Assembly (NCBI GenBank): GCA_017447805.1
Contig: JAFSMR010000037.1
Location: forward strand, 1-58,358
DNA: 58,358 nt
From: Kiritimatiellia bacterium
Lineage (GTDB): Bacteria; Verrucomicrobiota; Kiritimatiellia; RFP12; UBA1067
Direction of reading: 5' to 3'
This document shows, piece after piece, positions 3-58,358 of the stretch (its first letter is position 1; the number at the start of each line of letters is the position of its first letter). A program made the translations under genes and the position numbers. The notes under the pieces are model-generated. The model was not told where the DNA came from. It did not search any database and saw nothing but the letters and a program-made list of their open reading frames with translations.

Positions 3-638
3 CAATTATCTTCGGTAAAGCTTATGTTTTGCGGAAAAGATTTCTTTAGGAAGGGCGGGTCTGAAATAGTCCGAGCACTAATGAGGGTTCGGAAAGATTT
101 TGATGTAGAGGCTTACTTGATAGGTGATTATGACCATGTTGACTATGCGTCATCATGGGTGGTGGATAACGCGGAAGAGATGCGGAAGTTGATTGCAGAA
201 AATAGCGACTGGCTGCATTGTTACAACTCAATGCCTAATAACGAGATGCTGGAGTTGTCCAAAACGTGCCATATAGGTCTTTTGCCCACAAGAGATGACA
301 CTTTCGGGTATTCGGTTCTAGAGTTTCAGGCATGCGGATTGCCCTGTATAACGACAGACATCTGTTCTTTGCCAGAAGTAAATAATGATGAGATTGGTTG
401 GCTTCTAAAGGTGCCCAAGAAGTCAAATGGCTCTGCCGACTTTTCGACAGTGGAGAAGATGCGGGAATTGTCGCAGGTGATAGAATGTGGCATTGAGACA
501 ATATTGAGAGAAGCATTATCTAAGCCCGAGAAAATTTTCCTGAAGGGTCTGAAGTCTCTTCAGAATATTCAATCAAATCATACGCCCGAAAAATACGGGC
601 TGCGACTTGGGATGATATACAAAGAGGCGTTGAATTAG
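3..638 (+). CDS. GT4-like glycosyltransferase, 5' end cut off by the window edge
   Basis: This is the C-terminal part of a GT-B fold glycosyltransferase (GT4-like) that would transfer a nucleotide-activated sugar in surface-polysaccharide assembly. The frame is open to the window edge with no stop, so the apparent ATG at 24 is probably internal. The Rossmann-type C-terminal domain is recognisable: a FFRKGG segment near its start, then LLPTRDDTFGYSVLEFQACG, which matches the family's E-x7-E region that contacts the donor sugar nucleotide. Its stop overlaps the GTG start of the next gene by one base (TAGTG), so the two are probably translationally coupled. Donor and acceptor cannot be read from the sequence. 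Confidence 0.8.
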   Translation, partial: QLSSVKLMFCGKDFFRKGGSEIVRALMRVRKDFDVEAYLIGDYDHVDYASSWVVDNAEEMRKLIAENSDWLHCYNSMPNNEMLELSKTCHIGLLPTRDDTFGYSVLEFQACGLPCITTDICSLPEVNNDEIGWLLKVPKKSNGSADFSTVEKMRELSQVIECGIETILREALSKPEKIFLKGLKSLQNIQSNHTPEKYGLRLGMIYKEALN

Positions 639-1651
639 TGAAAATCCTCTATATCAGCGATCGTCGTGACGGCGGCATCTTGCGTCATGTGCGATGTCTG
701 CGTGAATGCTTGTCGCCAGAGGTGGAGACATTAGAAATCGGCAAAGGCGGAGATGAGGAGTTCGCAGGGAAGAGCGGTCATGACATCAAGGAGATTTGGC
801 AGATTCGTCGGGTGATAAAGACCTTTAAGCCCGACATTGTTCACTTTCATATTCCTGCTTTAATGATGGCGATGTATGTCAGGCTCTTTACGAGGTTGCC
901 GGTTATTCGCAGTTGGCACACACCCACTACTGGTGAAGAAGGTCTTAAGGATAAGGTTATGCGATGGCTGATGGGGCGCGGTTGTTATTATCTACCGGTC
1001 AGTTCAAAAACATGGGAAGGGCTAATGAGATGGGATTCTGGAATCAAAGGAGAGGTGTTTTATAATCCAGTTCGGATTGGTAACCATGTAGAACATGTAG
1101 AGCCTGTAGAAAAGGTTGCGTTTACCTTGGGAACGGTTGGACGTTGTGATCCAGCTAAAGGCTGGTCAGATCTTGTAACGATTGCAAAAATAACAGGCTT
1201 ACATTGTTTGGGTGTTGGTGTTACAGAAGACGAGGCTATATCTAAGTTTGGGGATTCGGCTAAAGCGATAGAGTGGAAAGGGCCTCAACCCAATGGCAGA
1301 GAATGGATTGGCAAGATGGATGTCTTTGTGCTGACAAGCAAGCATGAAGAAATGCCGACTGTTGTTCTTGAATGTTTTGCGGAGAAGACTCTGATATGCG
1401 GTTTTATTCCCGAAGGTGGGATGAGCGAGATTCTGTCATTCTCCGCAGGCCCATTGAAAGAAGTTTTTATAAAAGAGCGTGACACGACGCGTCTTTCGGA
1501 GATTGTCATATCTTTGTCGAATGATGAGTCTAAGCGTAAGGCGATTGTCGAGGACGGCTGGCAAATACTAGTCAATCACTTCGATGCAGAAAAGAACTGC
1601 CGAGGCCAGTTGATGGATGTTTATAGGCGCCTACTAACCACCAACCACTAG
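638..1651 (+). CDS. GT4 family glycosyltransferase
   Basis: A 337-aa cytoplasmic GT-B glycosyltransferase. The N terminus begins MKILYISDRRDGGILRHV, the usual first strand and glycine-rich loop of GT4 enzymes. The C-terminal half has TVGRCDPAKGWSDL followed by SKHEEMPTVVLECFAEK, which carries the two acidic residues of the EX7E motif. The start is GTG, chosen because it overlaps the previous stop and gives the canonical N terminus. It sits in a same-strand run of polysaccharide genes. About 30 bases of A/C/T-rich sequence with short CTA-containing repeats (around 1636-1665) separate it from the next gene. The sugar specificity is unknown. Confidence 0.85.
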   Translation: MKILYISDRRDGGILRHVRCLRECLSPEVETLEIGKGGDEEFAGKSGHDIKEIWQIRRVIKTFKPDIVHFHIPALMMAMYVRLFTRLPVIRSWHTPTTGEEGLKDKVMRWLMGRGCYYLPVSSKTWEGLMRWDSGIKGEVFYNPVRIGNHVEHVEPVEKVAFTLGTVGRCDPAKGWSDLVTIAKITGLHCLGVGVTEDEAISKFGDSAKAIEWKGPQPNGREWIGKMDVFVLTSKHEEMPTVVLECFAEKTLICGFIPEGGMSEILSFSAGPLKEVFIKERDTTRLSEIVISLSNDESKRKAIVEDGWQILVNHFDAEKNCRGQLMDVYRRLLTTNH

Positions 1652-1680
1652 TCACTAACTACTAATCCGAAGGATTTAAT

Positions 1681-2721
1681 ATGATTTGTTTCGCTTGGTG
1701 TGGATTCCCTCAATATGCTGCACGGTGTGTAGGCGCATTCGTAAGAAAAACACCAAAAGAAGATGTTGTCGTGATAGCGACGAAGCCTGCTGTCCCTGTG
1801 CTGGGGATGGAGCGGCTTTGCGGATGTAGGGTGGTATGGGTCGACGAAAATGATACGCAAGATATTGCATACCATCTAGGTATGGTCCCCGATAGATATT
1901 TTGTAACTGGATGGGCAACACCTTGTTTTAATCGTTATAGGGATCAAGTTCGCCGAACCTGTGGCAAAACGTTTCAGCTGATAGACAATAATTTTGTCGC
2001 ATCATTCAAGGAGTTCATAAAGTCAATCCGCTTTCGGTTACTGTTTAAGTCCAAATACGATGGGTATATGGTGCCGGGTAAATCTGGCAGGCGATTGTTG
2101 AGATACTATGGAGTTCCAGATAATAGAATATTTGAAGGCCTATATTCTGCCGATGGAACATTGTTTACTGATGGAGGCCCATTAGAGGCTAGGGATAAGC
2201 GAATTGTATATGTCGGGCAGTTTTGCGAGAGAAAAAATGTGTTGGATTTATGCCAAGCTTTCGTGAATTCCGCTATTGTTGAGAAGGGATGGTCTCTTTC
2301 TATGTATGGGTGCGGTCCGCAGAAGGCGGCTCTAGTCGAGATAGCCGTCAGAAATCGTGGCATTGAAATTAATGATTTTCTCCAGCCTGAAGGGTTGTCT
2401 CATGTGTATCGTAGTGCGCGCGTTTTCGCTCTTGCGAGCAAAGAAGAACATTGGGGGCTTGTCGTCCATGAAGCAGCGCAGAGCGGATGCTATCTTCTTC
2501 TTAGTGATAGGATCGGGGCCGCGGAGGATTTGCTAGGCTTGTCCAATGGAGCCAGTTTTAATCCCTATGATATTCATTCAATGAATCGGGCATTTCGTCT
2601 TGTAGCGAAATTGGAGAAAGAGGATTGGCTAAATGCTCGATGCGAGTCCTTGAGTTTGGCAAAAAGTATATCAATCGAGAAATTCTCTACCGGTATAAAT
2701 AAGATGCTAGAGTTATGTTGA
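1681..2721 (+). CDS. GT4 family glycosyltransferase
   Basis: A 346-aa glycosyltransferase. The C-terminal donor-binding domain is clear: RIVYVGQFCERKNVLDLC (a GT4 strand-loop), then MYGCGPQK and ASKEEHWGLVVHEAAQSG with the EX7E pair. The N-terminal acceptor half is divergent. An AGGAT-like ribosome site lies just before the ATG. The last bases overlap the ATG of the next gene, a Wzy-like polymerase, by seven nucleotides, so the two are expected to be cotranscribed and coupled. It probably builds one linkage of the same repeat unit. Confidence 0.85.
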   Translation: MICFAWCGFPQYAARCVGAFVRKTPKEDVVVIATKPAVPVLGMERLCGCRVVWVDENDTQDIAYHLGMVPDRYFVTGWATPCFNRYRDQVRRTCGKTFQLIDNNFVASFKEFIKSIRFRLLFKSKYDGYMVPGKSGRRLLRYYGVPDNRIFEGLYSADGTLFTDGGPLEARDKRIVYVGQFCERKNVLDLCQAFVNSAIVEKGWSLSMYGCGPQKAALVEIAVRNRGIEINDFLQPEGLSHVYRSARVFALASKEEHWGLVVHEAAQSGCYLLLSDRIGAAEDLLGLSNGASFNPYDIHSMNRAFRLVAKLEKEDWLNARCESLSLAKSISIEKFSTGINKMLELC

Positions 2722-4211
2722 AAACTAATCCATTTATGAGACTTGTTGCCAAGGATATAGCTTATCTTGTCCTTGCAATTATCCTCTTGAGGCTATCAAA
2801 GGGGGCATTTGTTTTTTTGATAGTTCTTGCAAGCGCCGCATTTTCGCTGCACAAAAAAGGGGGCGCAGCAGTTGCCTGCTTTGTATCTCTCTTCTTCTTG
2901 CAAAATGTTAATTTTGCGATAGTCCCAGCAACAGTGATGATGAACATTGGTTGCAAGATAGGGATAGCTATAATTGGTATGAGCATGGTGGTCGCCAATG
3001 CACCAAAGTCAAGATATAGATTGCCGCTGGGGGGGCTTGCAGGCTATATGATATGGATGAGCATATCTTCAGCGCAGGGCTATTTCCCGCTTATTAGCTA
3101 TCTTAAGATTCTTAACTACTCCCTTTTCCTTTTGGCGATAGGGTTCTCTGTGCGCTATATGCAACTATCGAGAAATGATGCTATGCAAATAAGAGCTATG
3201 TTTTTGGCTATTGCTTTTATTATGGTAATTGGCTCTATTATGACGCTCCCATTTCCGTCGATTGCTTATTCAAGACAACTGGAAAAAGCTGCAAGTTATG
3301 GAATTGAAATTACAGGGGAAATGCTTCTTGCTTCTGACGAAATGTCGCTTTTCAACGGCCTTTCATGGCATAGTCAAGCTTTGGCGCCAATGGTCGCAAT
3401 AACAGCTTTGTTTGTAGGATGCGATATGTTGTTTATAGAGAAGCGATTTACTCTAATACACATTGCGATACTGGCGGTCTCTCCTGTTGAAATGTTTATG
3501 ACAAGATCTCGTACTGCTCTATCTACCGCGATGATTGGAGGGTTGGTTCTTGTATTTTACGCTGTAAAGAACGCGGCAATTCCCTTATCGTTGAAAAAGA
3601 ATGTTCGCTCTTTAACTACAATCTTTATTGTTTTAGGGTTAATCGGCTTGGTCGTTTTGCAATTGCACGATCAGGGGTTGGATAAATGGCTTAGGAAAAC
3701 GGAAGATGTACAGACTGACGACCGAACGCTTGGGGAGGCAATCACATCCACGCGTATGGCATCCATAGAGATGAACATAGATGACTTTAAGAGAAGCCCA
3801 GTGTTGGGTACTGGCTTTCAGGTTATGTTCTTTTTCCCGTATTTATACCAACATGTCCCTTTTACATCTCTATTGTCGGCGCCTTGCGAGAAAGGAGAAA
3901 CTCCATTGGTAGTATTTGCGGAAGGTGGTGTTGTCGGCGGGACGCTTTTTTATATTTTCGTAATCGCGTTTTATGCGTATTGTGTTCGCAGAAAGCTTGT
4001 TTGCCTATTAACTTTATTCACAGCCCAGATGGTTTCGAATTTTAGCGAGTCGACATTCTTTTCGCCAACTGGAGCTGGCGGGTACCTATGGATTTTTACA
4101 ATGCTTGGCGGTATGACATTGGACTATATTGTAGCAACTTTATGTGATATACATGACCCACGATATAACATCGATACAACCATACAAGACCCGTATAGAG
4201 TGGGTCGATAG
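2715..4211 (+). CDS. O-antigen polymerase/ligase-like multi-pass membrane protein
   Basis: A 498-aa inner-membrane protein with about ten to twelve hydrophobic segments and a larger periplasmic loop in its second half (roughly residues 320-400). This is the architecture of the Wzy polymerase / WaaL ligase superfamily, which joins lipid-linked polysaccharide repeat units in the periplasm. The loop holds charged and polar residues (HDQGLDKWLRKTEDVQTDDR) and then GTGFQVMFFFPYLYQHVPF and a THxxx-free PHE-like segment, so sequence alone does not separate polymerase from ligase. The location among glycosyltransferases, with overlaps at both ends, supports the role. Confidence 0.75.
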   Translation: MLKTNPFMRLVAKDIAYLVLAIILLRLSKGAFVFLIVLASAAFSLHKKGGAAVACFVSLFFLQNVNFAIVPATVMMNIGCKIGIAIIGMSMVVANAPKSRYRLPLGGLAGYMIWMSISSAQGYFPLISYLKILNYSLFLLAIGFSVRYMQLSRNDAMQIRAMFLAIAFIMVIGSIMTLPFPSIAYSRQLEKAASYGIEITGEMLLASDEMSLFNGLSWHSQALAPMVAITALFVGCDMLFIEKRFTLIHIAILAVSPVEMFMTRSRTALSTAMIGGLVLVFYAVKNAAIPLSLKKNVRSLTTIFIVLGLIGLVVLQLHDQGLDKWLRKTEDVQTDDRTLGEAITSTRMASIEMNIDDFKRSPVLGTGFQVMFFFPYLYQHVPFTSLLSAPCEKGETPLVVFAEGGVVGGTLFYIFVIAFYAYCVRRKLVCLLTLFTAQMVSNFSESTFFSPTGAGGYLWIFTMLGGMTLDYIVATLCDIHDPRYNIDTTIQDPYRVGR

Positions 4212-5259
4212 GTGGCGAGGGTTGTTGACTCTTCTTGTTGTGCTAGGCCATGTATTTGGTATGGCATCGCACATGGGTGGGGTGTCGTCTAATGATTTCT
4301 TTTCGCTATTAAGAAACTCCATATATCTTTTTCATATGCCTGCTTTTTTTGCTTTGTCTGGTTTAGTATATAGAGGGAGATGTGAGAGCTTTAAGACTTA
4401 CTTAACGAAAAAGACAAAAAGATTGTTGATCCCATATTTTTTCTTTTCTGTTTTGTCGACTGGCATTTATATAGTTATTTCCGGAGGGTTCTCTTCTGCC
4501 GTTTCAATTTCTACCGATACGTATTATAGTGAAACTCATCGGGCTATATTACCTTTGTGGAAGCAGTTGATTGCTATTCTTTTCGCTAGTGGATGGCCAT
4601 CAGGGGTAGGATTCAAGATGAATAGCGTTTTGTGGTTTCTGCCCTGTTTGTTTGTTGTAGATATGTACGCATATTTATCGGATCGATTGTTTAAGAAGAG
4701 ATATTGGAAAATTCTAAATATTTCTGCGATGGTTGCTATTGCATGTGTGTGCATTCGCTATGATAATTGGATGTTGCCATGGGGATTGATGCGAGTTCCC
4801 GAAGCATTTTGTTATTTTATAATAGGTAGGTATTGCATCGGTAGAATCGAGTTTCGTTATTCCTCCGCGTCTTTGTTGTTAGTTATAGGCGTAATTTTTT
4901 GCGCCGCTCAAGCTCCAGATTCGTGGGCAAGAAAGGTCTCTTTGCTTTGGTATGTCGCATTTACGAGTTTTGCTATATTGGGAATATATGCGAGTGCTTG
5001 GTTTTCTCAATTTGTAAAGGTTCGTTTCTTGATGACAATCGGAGGCGCGTCAATAACGATAATGATGGTTCATAAGTATTTGATAATGGGCCTATTGCTG
5101 AAGATACCAGGGGCGATAGCAATCTCGCAAAAGGGGGTCGTCGCCTTTTTCGCGTACACATTGCTCGTTTCGGTCGTGGCTGTTTTGGGTGGCCTTTGTG
5201 CAAACTTTGTATTTAGAAAATATATGCCGCTATGCATCGGAGAGAGGCGAATTAAATGA
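4153..5259 (+). CDS. Acyltransferase 3 family membrane protein (OafA/WecH-like)
   Basis: A 368-aa multi-pass membrane protein of the acyltransferase-3 family, which O-acylates sugars of surface glycans. The N terminus has RIEWVDRWRGLLTLLVVLGH, with the D/RG and H residues that mark the family, followed by about ten membrane helices. I prefer the ATG at 4153 to the in-frame GTG at 4144. Even so, the start lies 59 bases inside the preceding polymerase gene, an unusually long overlap. The stop overlaps the next glycosyltransferase start as ATGA. The acyl group is probably acetyl, but that is inferred from the family. Confidence 0.8.
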   Translation: MTHDITSIQPYKTRIEWVDRWRGLLTLLVVLGHVFGMASHMGGVSSNDFFSLLRNSIYLFHMPAFFALSGLVYRGRCESFKTYLTKKTKRLLIPYFFFSVLSTGIYIVISGGFSSAVSISTDTYYSETHRAILPLWKQLIAILFASGWPSGVGFKMNSVLWFLPCLFVVDMYAYLSDRLFKKRYWKILNISAMVAIACVCIRYDNWMLPWGLMRVPEAFCYFIIGRYCIGRIEFRYSSASLLLVIGVIFCAAQAPDSWARKVSLLWYVAFTSFAILGIYASAWFSQFVKVRFLMTIGGASITIMMVHKYLIMGLLLKIPGAIAISQKGVVAFFAYTLLVSVVAVLGGLCANFVFRKYMPLCIGERRIK

Positions 5260-6368
5260 AAATTATCCAGGTAATTAAGACATTGTCGGAGGAATATGGA
5301 GGGCCTGCAAGGACAGTGCAAGGTCTAGTTTCGGGCTTGAGTAAGTGCGGTGTAGATGCTTGGCTTGTCTCTTTGGATGAATGTGTTCACCCGTGGGTGC
5401 AGGGGGTGCAAAATTATAGAAATCTAGGTTCCCCGAAATATTTCGAGACAATTCGTCTCATGGATGATTTGATTCACGAGTTACGACCGGATATTATACA
5501 GCTCAATGACTTTTGGATGCCTAGATTGCATGCATGCGCAATTGCCGCCAGACGCAAAAAGATCCCTTATATTCTTACTCCACATGGCACGCTCGACGAG
5601 TGGAGCCTTAGGCAAAAATGGTGGAAGAAATATCCGGCTCTTTGGACATATCAAGGCTACGATATGTGTCATGCTTTGGCTATTCATTCCACAGCAGAGC
5701 ATGAGATTCGCCAAATAAAGAAGTTTTGCGGAAGGACCCCCGTATATTTCAATACGAATGGAGTGATATTCCCGCACGATTTGCCGGAGTGGAAGCTTCG
5801 TGAAGACGGGTTTAGAAGAGCCGTATTCGTTAGCAGAATCCATAAGAAAAAAGGCTTGCTGAATCTGATAAAAGCGTGGTCCAAGGTTAAACCGGCCGGT
5901 TGGAAGATGGAAATCGTCGGTACGGATGCGGATGGATATCAAAAGGTTGTTGAGGATGCCGTCAGTGAATATGGGCTACAGGACGATTTTATCTTTACCG
6001 GGCCATTATCCGACGATAAGAAGTGGGAAGCGTATAGGCGAAGCGATCTATTCGTTTTACCTACTCATACCGAGAATTTCGGGATTGTCGTTGCCGAGGC
6101 TTTGTATGCTGGAATTCCTGTTGTCACTACGAAAGGTGCTCCATGGGGCGATCTATTAGATAGGAATTGTGGGTGGTGGGTAGATATAAGCGTCGATGCT
6201 ATCGCAGAGGCTCTGAAGAGCGCAATGTCATTGACTGACGAACAAAGGCTTGAGATGGGTATAAGAGGGCGAGCGCTGGTTATAGAGAAATATTCCTGGG
6301 ATAGGATAGCGGCGGATTTATCTAAGATATATCAAAGCCTACTAGAGGCGAAAAACAATCGAGAATAG
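5256..6368 (+). CDS. GT4 family glycosyltransferase
   Basis: A 370-aa GT-B glycosyltransferase and the most canonical of the cluster. It opens with [20 protein letters not shown], the GT4 glycine loop. HGTLDEWSL and the C-terminal [18 protein letters not shown] follow, then [20 protein letters not shown] with both EX7E glutamates. The start overlaps the acyltransferase stop (ATGA), and a seven-base gap separates it from the UDP-xylose synthase gene, which points to one operon. Xylose or another pentose is a possible donor given that neighbour, but this is only inference. Confidence 0.88.
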
Positions 6369-6375
6369 GAGTATC

Positions 6376-7365
6376 ATGGAACTAAAACTACCCAAAAAAG
6401 CCTTAGTCACTGGTGCGGCTGGGTTTCTCGGAAGCCACTTGTGCAAGAGGCTTCTTGATGAAGGCTACGAGGTTACTGCATTGGATAACCTTTTTACGGG
6501 CACTAAGAACAACATAATCGAGCTATTTGATAATAAGCGTTTTTCGTTCGTTTTGCATGATGTAACGCAGCCGTTTTGGGGCCAGTTCGATGAGATTTAC
6601 AATCTGGCGTGCCCTGCAAGCCCGATACATTATCAGCATAATCCTGTCGAGACTCTCAAGTCCAGCGTTCTCGGCATGATGAATATGCTGGACTTGGCGC
6701 TGAAGACTAAGGCTAAGATTCTACATACGTCAACGAGCGAGGTTTATGGCGATCCGCTTGTTCATCCGCAGGTCGAGAGTTATTGGGGCAATGTGAATAC
6801 TATTGGCGTACGTAGCTGCTATGATGAAGGTAAGCGCTGCGCCGAGACTCTTGCGGCAGATTATCGTCGCGAGTATGGCGTCGATGTGCGTATGGTTAGG
6901 ATCTTTAACACTTACGGGCCTCACATGCACCCGAAAGATGGTCGCGTGATATCCAACTTCATTATGCAGGCGCTAAATAACGAGGATATTACGCTATTTG
7001 GAGACGGCCTTCAGACTCGAAGTTTCCAGTACTGCGACGACTTGATCGAGGCTATGCGTCGCTATATGGAACTGCCGCGTGAGACTGTCGATGCATTCTG
7101 CGAAAAGCATAAGCTCGGCACTCCTGTGATAAACACCGGTAACCCCGGTGAATATACGATAAAGCAACTGGCCGAGGAGACCTTGCGGCAGCTGCCGGAG
7201 TCCAAGTCGAGACTCGTCTATCGTCCAATTCCCTCCGACGACCCCAAGCGACGCAAGCCGGATATTACCCTCGCAAAGGAACTCCTTGGCTGGGTGCCCA
7301 CAGTCCCTCTACAGGAAGGCCTTGCCAAAACCATCGCGTATTTCAGAGGCCTTATCGGTGTGTGA
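6376..7365 (+). CDS. UDP-glucuronate decarboxylase (UDP-xylose synthase), SDR family
   Basis: A 329-aa extended short-chain dehydrogenase that should convert UDP-glucuronate to UDP-xylose with a tightly bound NAD. The NAD loop GAAGFLGSH is at residues 13-21 and the catalytic YxxxK appears as [25 protein letters not shown] and the later [16 protein letters not shown] are characteristic of the UXS subgroup and less so of dTDP-glucose dehydratases. Length is normal. An AGGAG-type site precedes the ATG. It closes the first polysaccharide block and supplies the donor sugar for it. Paired hairpins follow the stop. Confidence 0.9.
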
Positions 7366-8472: not shown

Positions 8473-8488
8473 ACACCTTTCGTCCAGT

Positions 8489-8654
8489 AACACATATTAT
8501 AATAAGTGTTCCAATTCCCGAGCTTAGTAGGTTAAGCTACATATCACAGTAGATTCATAGAACACATATTATAATATGTGTTCCTGCCATATCAGACCCA
8601 GGTAGAGCAGTTCCCAGTGAAGATACCAATGACACATATTATAATATGTGTTCC
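8489..8654. repeat. Three evenly spaced 22-bp palindromes
   Basis: The core ACACATATTATAATATGTGT is its own reverse complement. Copies are at 8489-8510 (one mismatch), 8561-8582 (perfect) and 8631-8652, each followed by CC and spaced 70-72 bases apart. A fourth copy is at 12379. Each contains TATAAT on both strands, so they could be bidirectional -10 regions, operators or mini-element ends. The 47-48 base intervening sequences are unrelated to each other. Confidence 0.8.
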
Positions 8655-8670
8655 AAGTTTACTCGTTTCT

Positions 8671-8787: not shown

Positions 8788-8875
8788 CTGTCATCGCCAA
8801 GGATGTCGAATCTCGGTCGGTGTCGGCGGCAATCCTGCCAAGTTCATCAAAAAGCGCGAGCTGAAAAATAACTGA
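8788..8875 (+). pseudogene. Remnant: 3' end of a hexapeptide O-acetyltransferase gene (copy 3)
   Basis: The reading VIAKDVESRSV, a one-base shift, then GGNPAKFIKKRELKNN and a stop matches the end of a WbbJ/maltose-acetyltransferase-type enzyme. The stop overlaps the degenerate start of the glycosyltransferase remnant that follows. This suggests an original coupled acetyltransferase-glycosyltransferase pair, now eroded. Confidence 0.6.
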
Positions 8876-8932
8876 CCTTTCCGTTATCATCCTTACCAAG
8901 AACGAGCAGCTGCATATTCAGCGGCGCTTGAG
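8871..8932 (+). pseudogene. Remnant: 5' end of a WaaE-type GT2 glycosyltransferase gene
   Basis: The frame reads TDLSVIILTKNEQLHIQRRL, which aligns residue by residue with the N terminus of the GT2 gene at 10215 (TDLSVVILAKNEKLHIKRCL). It breaks off at about 8932, just before the end of the convergent ATPase gene. It appears to be a truncated paralogue. Confidence 0.7.
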
Positions 8933-8946
8933 TAATTCTAGTGATG

Positions 8947-10083
8947 TCAAATTGTGAGTGTGCGCAGGAATTCCTCTACTGGAATGCAGAGGACATCATT
9001 GCGGAGATGCCTCTCGGTTCCGCGATAGAGCAGGATGCGCCGCGCTTCGGGATAGTCCGCCGCGAATGCCCTGAGCCCCGAAAAATCCTTCGGGGAGAGC
9101 CTTGCTGCGTTTTTCACTTCAATGGCATCGAACCTGTCTTCGCCATAGATTACGAAATCGACTTCCTGCCCTGTGTGCGTTCGCCAGAAGCTCAACGTGT
9201 CACCCGTGGCGCGGTAATCTATCCACGTTCTCAGCTGCTGAAAGACAAGTCCCTCCAGCGCGGCTCCGTCGATTTCGGCGGGCAGATCGAGCGGCCCCTT
9301 TGGGCGGACTGCGCGAAAGACGCCGGCGTCGAAGAAATAGAACTTGTCGTGTCCGACGAGCCGGCGCTTTGCCCTTCGCGTGAACGGCGGCAGTCGCGCC
9401 GCAACGAGCAGATCGACGAGAATCGAGAGGTAGGCGTCCACCATCGTCCTGCTTACGCCGCAGTCGCGGGAAATGTCCGTGGCGGAGTAGAGCGAGCCGT
9501 GGGAGAAGGATATCGCTTCGAGGAAGCGTGCGAATGCAGGAAGATTCCTGACGAGACCTTCGTACTGGACTTCTTCGCGGACATAGATCGCCATGTAGGT
9601 GGCGAGCGTCTGCCTCCAGTCTTCGGAGGAGATGACGAGCGGAATCATGCCGCGCACAAGGGCGTCTTCGAGCTTAAAGTCCCCGCCCATTTCCGCCGCG
9701 AGGAGCGGATGGCAATAGTGGACGACGGCGCGTCCAGCCAGGAGATCCACACCGCTTCGCTTCAGCTTCCGGGCGCTGGAGCCGGTCAGTATGTATCGAC
9801 GGGCGCTGCCGTCGCGTTCGATGAGCCTATGCACGACGGGCAGAAGGGAGCTTACGCGCTGCACTTCGTCAATGACGATGGTGCTGGTGTCTGGGTGCGC
9901 GTCGATCATCTCGGCGAGCCGTTCGGGCTGGGCTTCGAGCCGAGTCTTGATATCCTCGCGCAGCAAATCGATATACAGGGCATCGGGGAACGTATCGTGA
10001 AGCCATGTGGACTTGCCAGTTCCTCGTGGTCCGAAAAGGAAGAAACTTCCTTTGCCGAAATTGATGAGCCTTTGGTACTTCAT
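8947..10083 (-). CDS. AAA-type ATPase with DUF4143 C-terminal domain
   Basis: A 378-aa cytoplasmic P-loop ATPase of the AAA_14/DUF4143 group. The Walker A loop FGPRGTGKST is at about residues 17-26 and Walker B TIVIDEVQR near 69-77. The sensor segment LTGSSARKL follows. The C-terminal domain ends in EVDFVIYGEDRFDAIEVK, a pattern like a PD-(D/E)XK nuclease core. I chose the ATG at 10083, which begins MKYQRLINFGKG as in relatives; the open frame continues upstream without homology. It is transcribed against its neighbours and is divergent from the GT2 gene. The function of this family is not established. Expanded sets occur in anaerobic gut bacteria. Confidence 0.85.
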   Translation of the reverse strand: MKYQRLINFGKGSFFLFGPRGTGKSTWLHDTFPDALYIDLLREDIKTRLEAQPERLAEMIDAHPDTSTIVIDEVQRVSSLLPVVHRLIERDGSARRYILTGSSARKLKRSGVDLLAGRAVVHYCHPLLAAEMGGDFKLEDALVRGMIPLVISSEDWRQTLATYMAIYVREEVQYEGLVRNLPAFARFLEAISFSHGSLYSATDISRDCGVSRTMVDAYLSILVDLLVAARLPPFTRRAKRRLVGHDKFYFFDAGVFRAVRPKGPLDLPAEIDGAALEGLVFQQLRTWIDYRATGDTLSFWRTHTGQEVDFVIYGEDRFDAIEVKNAARLSPKDFSGLRAFAADYPEARRILLYRGTERHLRNDVLCIPVEEFLRTLTI

Positions 10084-10540
10084 GGCGCATATTGTATCAA
10101 ATATCCTTGAAGAATGCAAGTGTCGCGTGCAAAATACATTGAAAATTGAAAGTTTGTCGTGCAAAATGCAATCAAGGGCTTCGATGCTATACAGTTGATG
10201 TAGGGGGCGATTCAATGACAGACCTTTCAGTTGTCATACTTGCGAAAAACGAAAAGTTGCACATCAAGCGGTGTTTGGAGAAGCTTGCGCCACTTGAAGC
10301 GCGGCAAATCTTCGTAGTTGACTGTTTTTCTACAGATGGCAACGACAAGATTGCCGCAGACATGGGCGCGGTTACCGTGTTCAACAAGTGGCCGGGACTC
10401 TATGCCAAGCAGTTCAACTGGGCGTTGGACAATCTGCCAATCAAGTCGAGTTGGATTTTGAGATTGGATGCGGACGAGTATTTGTATCCTGATGCAATTG
10501 AAGAGGTAAAGACCCTACTTCCAAAGTGGGACGGAGAAAA

Positions 10541-10574
10541 GGTCACGGCTGGCGGCTTGCCGCCGGACGTGACC
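10541..10574. repeat. Nested palindrome inside the GT2 gene
   Basis: The outer arms GGTCACG and CGTGACC (10541-10547, 10568-10574) enclose the inner arms GGCGGC-TT-GCCGCC (10551-10564). This gives a 34-base hairpin with one internal loop. It encodes residues absent from related enzymes and lies directly before the CT tract, so it may be a small inserted element. Confidence 0.7.
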
Positions 10575-10577
10575 TCC

Positions 10578-10601
10578 CTCTCTCTCTCTCTCGCGCGCGC
10601 G
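10578..10601. repeat. Microsatellite (CT)7 followed by (CG)5 in a coding region
   Basis: Seven CT units at 10578-10591 run into five CG units at 10592-10601 and then six T bases. Loss of two bases here joins the two halves of the glycosyltransferase. Dinucleotide tracts of this kind are typical slippage sites. Confidence 0.85.
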
Positions 10602-11112
10602 TTTTTTGCGGTCGCAAAATAAGGTTTGGCGGGACCGCGCATATCCCGATGGTTCGGTTCTTCAAGTATGGCATTGGCCGTTGTCAGGATCGTGCGATGG
10701 ACGAACATATCGTCACACGCGAGGGTGTGGATTACAGACTCAAAGGTGAGTTTGCTGACGATAATCTCAATACCATGGACTGGTGGCGCGAGAAGCATCG
10801 TGGTTATGCCAAGCGCGAGGCAATAGATGCGCTTGCTGGAGAGACGTTCAAGACTTCGAAGAGCCTCTACTATCGCTTCCCTCCATATCTTCGCGCCTTC
10901 ATTTACTTTTCTATCCGATATTTTCTTCTTCTCGGCTTCCTTGATGGCTATGCCGGCTGGATGTGGCACTTCTACCAAGCTCTCTGGTATCGCCTCCTCG
11001 TCGACCACGAGATTGGGAAGATGAAAAGGCAACAGGATTTACAAGAGTGAAGTAAGGTTTCGTGCACATGCTTACGATAAAATGCGTTACGAGAAATATC
11101 ATTTGTTCGCGC

Positions 11113-47921: not shown

Positions 47922-47930
47922 CATAGGAAT

Positions 47931-48022
47931 TAGAAATTAGGAATTAGGAGTTAGGAGTTATGAGTTAGGAATTAGGAGTTAGGAGTTAGGAATTAGGAGT
48001 TAGGAATTAGAAATTAGGAATT
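47931..48022. repeat. Heptanucleotide repeat tract (GAATTAG type)
   Basis: About thirteen degenerate heptads of the GAATTAG/GAGTTAG type in a row. Similar tracts occur at 33135-33168, 58141-58170, 58224-58262 and to the window end. No coding sense. Confidence 0.85.
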
Positions 48023-48111
48023 ATGATTAAACAACCTCTGCGCACTCAGCGTTAAACAAAAACTCCAACTCTTTCCTCCAACTACCTGTTCTCCTGTCCT
48101 CCATGCTAAAA

Positions 48112-57310: not shown

Positions 57311-57825
57311 ATGCAGAACAATAGACAAGAACTCAACAGAAACCTCGCACAGATGCTCAAGGGCGGCGTTATAATGGATGTGACAACGCCCGAGCAGGCG
57401 AAGATTGCCGAGGCTGCAGGCGCGTGCGCAGTGATGGCGCTCGAGCGCATCCCGGCCGATATCCGCGCGGCCGGTGGCGTCTCGCGAATGAGCGACCCCG
57501 CAGATGATACGCGGCATATCGACAAGACCAAATTCGCCGCGTCGCGTCGCTTCGCGAGGATGAACTTTACGAGGCGGCAAAGGAACTCGCTTCACCGCTG
57601 GATCTCGTTGAATTCGTCCACGATAACGGCAAGCTGCCCGTCGTGAATTTCGCCGCGGGCGGCGTCGCCACGCCCGCAGATGCCGCGCTTATGATGGAGC
57701 TTGGCGCCGAGGGCGTCTTTGTGGGCAGCGGCATCTTCAAGTCGGGCGACCCGGAAAAGTGCGCCGCGGCAATTGTCCAGGCCGTTGCAAATTGGCAGGA
57801 TTCAAAGCTCCTCGCAAAACCTCGT
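57311..57825 (+). pseudogene. pdxS: PdxS (PLP synthase) pseudogene with two internal deletions
   Basis: It begins like Pdx[21 protein letters not shown] and [20 protein letters not shown]. At about 57499 ([15 protein letters not shown]) ~40 residues are missing in frame, including the Lys of PVMAKxRIGH that binds the substrate. At about 57536 a second deletion of ~75 residues removes the other catalytic Lys (RTKGEPGTGN) and shifts the frame. The end then reads [12 protein letters not shown] and [20 protein letters not shown]. The C-terminal tail is replaced by 42-bp repeats. The start is set by GGAGG seven bases before 57311. Confidence 0.88.
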
Positions 57826-57826
57826 T

Positions 57827-58078
57827 GCGAGCGGCTCGCAAGGGGCAGTTGGAAGTCGATTACCGCTTGCGAGCGGCTCGCGAGGGACATTCGAAAGTCG
57901 ATTACCGCTTGCGAGCGGCTCGCAAGGGGGAGTTGGAAGTCGATTATCGCTTGCGAGCGGCTCGCAAGGGGCAGTTGGAAGTCGATTGCCGCCTGCGAGC
58001 GGCTCGCGAGGGGGAGTTGAAAGTCGATTATCGCTTGCGAGCGGCTCGCGAGGGGGAGTTGCTTTTTAATTGCTGCTT
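57827..58078. repeat. Six-copy 42-bp tandem repeat
   Basis: Units start at 57827, 57869, 57911, 57953, 57995 and 58037, with a partial unit at 58079. The core is GCGAGCGGCTCGC(A/G)AGGG. The plus strand continues the pdxS frame as a 14-residue repeat ([14 protein letters not shown]) to a stop at 58018. The unit length equals that of the unrelated array at 27480. Confidence 0.9.
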
Positions 58079-58141
58079 GCGAGCCCTTGGCGCCGAAAAA
58101 ATTTTTTGATAAAATTTCGATAGCTCAAAAAAGCTGGACAG

Positions 58142-58330
58142 AATTAGGAATTAGAAATTAGAAATTAGTAGTTGGCAGTTATTATTTAACCCGAGAGGCG
58201 CTGAGGCGCTGAGTACCAGATATGAATTAGGAATTAGGAATTAGAAATTAGAAATTAGTAGTTGGCAGTTATTATTTAATCCGAGAGGCGCTGAGGCGCT
58301 AAGTACCAGATAGGAATTATGAATTATGAA
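58142..58330. repeat. 90-bp tandem duplication with heptad tracts
   Basis: The sequence from a GAATTAG heptad tract through GTTGGCAGTTATTATTTAA and GAGAGGCGCTGAGGCGCTGA occurs twice, 90 bases apart (58171 and 58261). A shorter, similar motif is at 48038. No gene is seen from 58079 to the window end. Confidence 0.85.
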
Positions 58331-58358
58331 TTAGGAATTAGGAATTAGAAATTAGAAA

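What the first reader, a model, noticed from the sequence alone, without database searches (positions are those of the whole stretch)
10578..10601. Dinucleotide tract joins two halves of a WaaE-like glycosyltransferase: phase-variation candidate
N- and C-terminal halves of one GT2 enzyme lie in different frames that meet in (CT)7(CG)5. Deleting exactly one two-base unit restores a continuous protein with the family sequence RVFCGRKIRFGG. Slippage here would switch a surface sugar on and off.
Basis: partly seen in the sequence, partly recalled or inferred. Interest (0 to 1): 0.75.

Follow-up and report, generated by a model that had tools for sequence, protein, structure and literature searches.

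The report
Repeat-tract switch in sugar-transferase gene
A rumen bacterium's gene for attaching a cell-surface sugar is split out of frame by one extra two-letter unit inside a CT/CG repeat, and the same repeat sits at the same spot, in frame, in related genes from three bacterial phyla, which suggests a mutation-prone on/off switch, although no switching has yet been seen.

Summary
A GT2 glycosyltransferase gene starts at 10215 and leaves its frame in (CT)7(CG)5 (10578-10601); its second half continues in another frame to 11050 with no further lesion. Relatives show it is more than a broken gene. Same-genus G031 and G017, and two other Kiritimatiellae, carry the same tract at the same codons with the gene intact. 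So do an Akkermansiaceae genome and seven Bacteroidales genomes, among them a Bacteroides bouchesdurhonensis isolate. The tract is the only (CT)6+ run in the window's 2.25-Mb genome. In carriers its codons are about 1e-5 to 1e-9 likely given the amino acids. Every other carrier has one fixed strand length and is in frame; the window gene is one dinucleotide unit longer, so it reads as an OFF allele. The gene ends a Wzy/glycosyltransferase polysaccharide cluster. Best reading: an SSR contingency (phase-variable) glycosyltransferase, currently OFF. This is a known kind of mechanism in a gene lineage and phyla where my searches found no report of it. Not shown: variation within a species, actual switching, the sugar made. 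'WaaE-like' was not verified, and the extra unit is probably CG rather than CT. An assembly indel in this one genome remains possible.

The parts
10215..10622 (+). N-terminal half of the GT2 glycosyltransferase (GT-A nucleotide-sugar domain with DADE motif), ending at TAA by frame loss in the tract
   Evidence: PF00535 E=2.9e-9; PF13704 E=3e-6
10541..10574 (+). Stem-loop GGTCACG...CGTGACC directly 5' of the repeat; a coding insert relative to tract-less family members
   Evidence: RNA fold -27.8 kcal/mol, z -5.2; also in G031, G017 and L098 (z -4.5 to -6.5); absent from Bacteroidales/Akkermansiaceae carriers
10578..10601 (+). Composite dinucleotide tract (CT)7(CG)5, encoding the core beta strand after the DADE helix; one unit longer than the in-frame length
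   Evidence: (strand E133-144 in the G031 model)
10602..10607 (+). T6 run next to the tract (alternative but less likely slippage site; the same T6 is in G009)
10601..11050 (+). C-terminal half of the same enzyme in the shifted frame, intact and conserved
   Evidence: (87% identity to G009, dN 0.088, dS 1.27)
24..7365 (+). Polysaccharide biosynthesis cluster upstream: GT4-type glycosyltransferases, Wzy_C O-antigen ligase/polymerase-type protein, acyltransferase, sugar epimerase/dehydratase
8868..8930 (+). Remnant of a second copy of the start of the same GT2 gene

Best explanation
It is a simple-sequence-repeat contingency gene: a GT2 glycosyltransferase of a surface-polysaccharide locus whose core beta strand ([S/T]-x-L-S-L-S-[L/R]-A-R) is encoded by a (CT)n(CG)m microsatellite. 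Polymerase slippage adds or removes a dinucleotide unit. One unit count gives full-length enzyme (ON); one more or one less shifts the frame and truncates the protein just after the nucleotide-sugar-binding half (OFF). The assembled genome carries the +1-unit OFF allele. Shown: the tract, the frame break, the intact second half, the in-frame relatives with the same tract, the codon bias toward the repeat, the polysaccharide context. Inferred: that units are gained and lost at high rate, that switching is reversible, and that it changes a surface sugar.
For: Frame break exactly in the tract with both halves otherwise intact. Only (CT)6+ run in the genome. In 61 genus genomes only four carry (CT)7+, three of them in this gene; the fourth (G077) lies outside it. 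In-frame same-genus orthologues with (CT)11(CG)1 (G031) and (CT)9(CG)3 (G017). Tract of 5 or more CT units at the same codons in 12 of 79 family loci: four Kiritimatiellae/Verrucomicrobia MAGs, one Akkermansiaceae, seven Bacteroidales. In the phylum scan (388 genomes) the only two hits to (CT)6CGCG besides the window were in this gene. In at least five carriers it is the only (CT)5+ run in the genome. Codon probability given the amino acids 1e-4.8 to 1e-9.0; CTC is 4.8% of Leu codons at the Bacteroides locus yet all three tract leucines use it. Tree needs at least 4 changes of the trait on well-supported branches. Constant strand length in all in-frame members, one unit more in the window. Purifying selection on the out-of-frame half, dN/dS about 0.07 against G009. 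Polysaccharide loci in the window, G031, B. bouchesdurhonensis and Akkermansiaceae.
Against: No within-species length variation was seen, because only one genome per species is held and no reads. All other complete carriers are in frame, and the homology search ranked full-length matches first, so the OFF fraction is not estimated. Dinucleotide tracts of 5-9 units are modest; in Neisseria, authors excluded dinucleotide tracts because evidence for phase variation was insufficient (PMC5953494). A few unrelated genes also hold (CT)6 tracts.
Confidence: 0.68

Rival explanations
1. The frame break is an assembly or PCR-stutter error of one unit in a low-complexity tract; the real gene is in frame.
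For: The window is from a MAG in 74 contigs. Three contigs of relative G009 end exactly at this point, so the region is hard to assemble. The OFF state is seen in one genome only.
Against: At least 12 other assemblies resolve the same kind of tract in frame. It would not explain the conserved tract itself.
Confidence: 0.16
2. A fixed frameshift: the gene is a recent pseudogene in this species and the tract is merely where it broke.
For: A remnant of another copy of the gene lies at 8868-8930, so copies do decay in this locus. Several genus members lack the gene.
Against: No second lesion in 830 bp and low dN/dS in the out-of-frame half. The tract is retained in distant relatives.
Confidence: 0.1
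3. The tract is kept for another DNA- or protein-level reason (beta-strand sequence, unusual DNA structure), with no role in switching.
For: The strand is structurally central and its length is constant in in-frame members. CT/CG repeats can adopt non-B DNA (general knowledge).
Against: Codon choice far exceeds the amino-acid need. Members such as L110, L111 and L099 keep a similar strand with mixed codons.
Confidence: 0.1
4. Programmed recoding: RNA-polymerase or ribosome slippage on T6, with the stem-loop, yields full-length protein from the shifted gene.
For: A strong stem-loop lies just upstream and a T6 run follows the tract.
Against: Orthologues G031, G017 and L098 have the stem-loop but are in frame without recoding. 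T6 +1 gives a strand one residue too long. The stem-loop is absent from other carriers.
Confidence: 0.04

Closest known systems
Helicobacter pylori oipA and other CT-repeat outer-membrane protein genes
   Same: CT dinucleotide repeat inside the coding frame; unit changes cause frameshifts and phase variation by slipped-strand mispairing (PMC10564699); that such CT tracts read as alternating Leu-Ser is from general knowledge
   Different: There the tract is in a signal peptide at the 5' end of an outer-membrane protein gene. Here it is mid-gene, encodes a core beta strand of a GT-A enzyme, and is a CT/CG composite
Phase-variable LOS/pilin glycosyltransferases of Neisseria (lgt, pgl genes)
   Same: SSR-mediated frameshift switching of a surface-sugar transferase (PMC5953494)
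   Different: The lgt tracts are mostly poly-G; different phylum and a different enzyme lineage (the last point from general knowledge)
Bacteroides capsule/outer-surface phase variation by DNA inversion
   Same: Switching of surface polysaccharide or surface proteins in gut Bacteroidota (PMC11868660)
   Different: Works by invertible segments and an invertase, not by microsatellite slippage inside an enzyme gene
SunS/ThuS glycosin S-glycosyltransferases and GmaR (GT2 solved structures)
   Same: Nearest solved relatives of the family by fold (SunS, E 1.5e-11) and by sequence (GmaR, E 4.5e-14)
   Different: TM-score only about 0.5 and 15-16% identity; gives the fold, not the function

Membership tests
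SSR contingency (phase-variable) locus | Repeat tract longer than the genome's background | tested here: met
   Only (CT)6+ in 2.25 Mb; only dinucleotide run of 6+ units in the window; same in several carriers
SSR contingency (phase-variable) locus | Unit gain or loss changes reading frame of the gene | tested here: met
   Dinucleotide unit inside the ORF; window allele out of frame, relatives in frame
SSR contingency (phase-variable) locus | Tract conserved in orthologues beyond amino-acid need | tested here: met
SSR contingency (phase-variable) locus | Length polymorphism within one species or population | not testable with these tools
   One genome per species; no reads held
SSR contingency (phase-variable) locus | Reversible high-frequency switching of phenotype | not testable with these tools
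   Needs culture or reporter
SSR contingency (phase-variable) locus | Gene affects a surface structure | tested here: inconclusive
   Polysaccharide cluster context; product sugar unknown
Glycosyltransferase family 2 (PF00535) | Profile match over the GT-A domain | tested here: met
   E=2.9e-9 for the window half; E=1.2e-16 for L126
WaaE (LPS core beta-glucosyltransferase) | Match to a curated WaaE model or known WaaE substrate and role | tested here: inconclusive
   No NCBIfam model reaches its cut-off; no direct comparison with a WaaE sequence was made; activity untested

The most novel reading that the evidence does not exclude
One GT2 glycosyltransferase lineage carries a composite (CT)n(CG)m contingency tract at its core beta strand across Kiritimatiellota, Verrucomicrobiota and Bacteroidota, so that microsatellite phase variation of surface sugar exists in phyla known mainly for invertase-based switching, with a conserved stem-loop beside the tract in the rumen clade that may raise the slippage rate.
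Probability: 0.4. Interest if true: 0.72.

Novelty: new member of a known kind. Interest (0 to 1): 0.57.

Why it matters
If true, gut and rumen commensals of three phyla share a microsatellite switch in a surface-sugar gene, a mechanism studied mainly in pathogens such as Neisseria, Haemophilus and Helicobacter. [quoted passage not shown] This locus gives a cheap test: tract length can be read directly from existing metagenome reads, and B. bouchesdurhonensis, a cultured commensal, carries an in-frame (CT)7(CG)4 copy.

Tried and rejected
1) Hairpin plus CT tract as a dispersed mobile element: the hairpin pattern occurs elsewhere in the genus, but mostly as an unrelated 21-bp palindrome, and none of the listed copies outside this gene has the window's hairpin sequence; other CT tracts in carriers are unrelated genes or non-coding. 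2) The tract as a recombination junction between N and C modules: percent identities of the halves looked discordant, but trees of the two halves do not conflict (AU p 0.44 on the N half for the C-half clade); dropped. 3) One-T insertion in T6: gives a strand one residue too long and T6 is shared with G009. 4) Finding OFF alleles in Bacteroidaceae by protein search (399 genomes), and more tract carriers by DNA pattern in Bacteroidales and Muribaculaceae (393 and 397 genomes): no carriers beyond those already known. 5) Phage copies: none. 6) Literature on SSR phase variation in Bacteroides, Prevotella, Kiritimatiellae or Verrucomicrobia glycosyltransferases: no report found in the open-access library; subscription papers were not searched.

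Full report
The observation. A GT2 glycosyltransferase gene begins at ATG 10215 and stays open to TAA 10620-10622 (135 aa). Its second half is open in another frame to 11050 and begins ...RVFCGRKIRFGG.... The frames meet in (CT)7(CG)5 followed by T6. The window is a whole contig (C27) of a 2.25-Mb metagenome-assembled genome, 93% complete. The first half matches PF00535 and PF13704. No curated NCBIfam model, WaaE included, reaches its cut-off for the family, so 'WaaE-like' is a lead and not a test.

More than chance. The tract is the only dinucleotide run of six or more units in the 58-kb window and the only (CT)6+ run on either strand of the genome. Among 61 genomes of the genus, four have a (CT)7+ run; in three (G000, G017, G031) it is in this gene, while the fourth (G077) has it in an unrelated place.

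In-frame relatives. G031 (63% identity) and G017 (58%) have the whole gene open in one frame, with (CT)11(CG)1 and (CT)9(CG)3 at the same codons. G009, the closest relative in the C-terminal half, cannot be read across the tract, because its contigs end exactly there. A search of 84,980 species genomes with the family alignment gave 79 loci with organism names. G031 is rumen isolate RUG11810 and G017 is Verrucomicrobia UBA3783, so the window comes from that group of rumen Kiritimatiellae-like bacteria. Of the 79 loci, 12 carry five or more CT units at the homologous strand: four Kiritimatiellae/Verrucomicrobia, one Akkermansiaceae, and seven Bacteroidales including the isolate Bacteroides bouchesdurhonensis P2653T. 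A Phocaeicola massiliensis record has a shorter form, (CT)4(CG)5.

Specificity. In a scan of 388 genomes of the phylum, (CT)6CGCG was found in three: the window, G017 and an Akkermansiaceae genome, all in this gene. In 393 Bacteroidales and 397 Muribaculaceae the only hits were the genomes used as search centres, again in this gene; those two scans show rarity, not independent recurrence. Within at least five carriers it is the only (CT)5+ run in the genome. Tracts of six units do occur in unrelated genes of the order, so the enrichment is for the longer, CG-flanked form.

Not explained by the protein. The encoded peptide ([S/T]-x-L-S-L-S-[L/R]-A-R) forms the core strand after the DADE helix in the G031 model (strand 133-144; mean pLDDT 84). 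Given the amino acids, and the codon usage of each carrier's own locus, the observed codons have probabilities of 1e-4.8 to 1e-9.0. In B. bouchesdurhonensis CTC is 4.8% of leucine codons, yet all three tract leucines are CTC. Family members without the tract encode a similar strand with mixed codons (L110, L111, L099).

Evolution. A tree built without the tract columns puts carriers in three places: the rumen Kiritimatiellota clade, Akkermansiaceae, and a Bacteroidales clade (7 of 9). At least four changes of the trait are forced by well-supported branches. In all in-frame members the strand has one length, while CT and CG counts vary (CT 4-11, CG 1-5), as expected if total length is held by function while the boundary moves by compensating unit changes or point mutations. 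The window gene is one unit longer. Against L102, its nearest relative with a readable tract, the surplus is a CG unit. The out-of-frame half keeps dN/dS near 0.07 against G009 and has no second lesion, so the break is recent, reversible or an artefact.

Context. In the window the gene follows GT4-type transferases, a Wzy_C protein, an acyltransferase and an epimerase. In G031 it lies next to a Wzy_C gene with GT4, GT25 and GT11 genes. In B. bouchesdurhonensis it sits between glycosyltransferases and GDP-mannose dehydratase and epimerase genes. Surface polysaccharide synthesis is therefore likely; the sugar is unknown.

Mechanism. The best reading is slipped-strand phase variation: one unit count gives the full enzyme; the window's +1 allele ends after the nucleotide-sugar half. 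Shown are the tract, the frame break, the in-frame relatives and the codon bias. Inferred are a high slip rate, reversibility and a surface effect. A stem-loop directly upstream (z -4.5 to -6.5 in four species) is unique to the rumen clade. It may raise slippage or hinder assembly, but it is absent from the other carriers and so is not essential.

Novelty. CT-repeat frameshift switching is known (H. pylori oipA, PMC10564699), as are SSR-switched glycosyltransferases in Neisseria (PMC5953494). Bacteroides switching is known by inversion (PMC11868660). I found no report of a microsatellite-switched glycosyltransferase in these phyla, in an open-access library only. I class it as a new member of a known kind, with an unusual conserved, composite, mid-gene tract.

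Limits. No reads, no second genome of any carrier species and no experiment. The homology search favours full-length matches, so the ON/OFF ratio is not estimated. An assembly indel in this one MAG is the main rival for the OFF state, though not for the tract itself.

Noticed in passing
window 8868-8930: 63-bp remnant of the N-terminus of the same GT2 gene, separated from the real gene by a minus-strand DUF4143/AAA_14 ATPase gene (8947-10215). In G031 a DUF4143 ATPase gene lies directly downstream of the GT2 gene.
   Followed up: partly
window 8485-8655: Three copies of a palindrome close to ACACATATTATAATATGTGTTCC in a 170-bp non-coding stretch between the polysaccharide genes and the GT2 gene.
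   Followed up: no
window 10541-10574; L003, L005, L098: Strong stem-loop GGTCACG...CGTGACC just 5' of the CT tract in four Kiritimatiellae species. At one stem position G017 has G-C and L098 has T-A, which suggests a compensatory change.
   Followed up: partly
many genus genomes, e.g. G060:C88, G007, G027: Dispersed 21-bp palindrome GGTCACGCGTCCCGCGTGACC recurring across the genus, at least five copies within 700 bp in G060.
   Followed up: no
G009 contigs C251, C165, C281 (L051, L052, L033): All three contigs end at the repeat position of this gene; C165 duplicates 16.3 kb of C251 at 99.98% identity with a different end, an assembly branch at the tract.
   Followed up: partly
L102 3116-4666: The GT2 reading frame of RGIG5050 holds a foreign-looking in-frame stretch of roughly 190 aa between the first beta strands and the WPG motif.
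   Followed up: no
window 47924-48023, 57825-58061, 58141-58355: Heptanucleotide (TAGGAAT/GAATTAG) and 42-bp tandem arrays in the contig, among them one at its right end.
   Followed up: no
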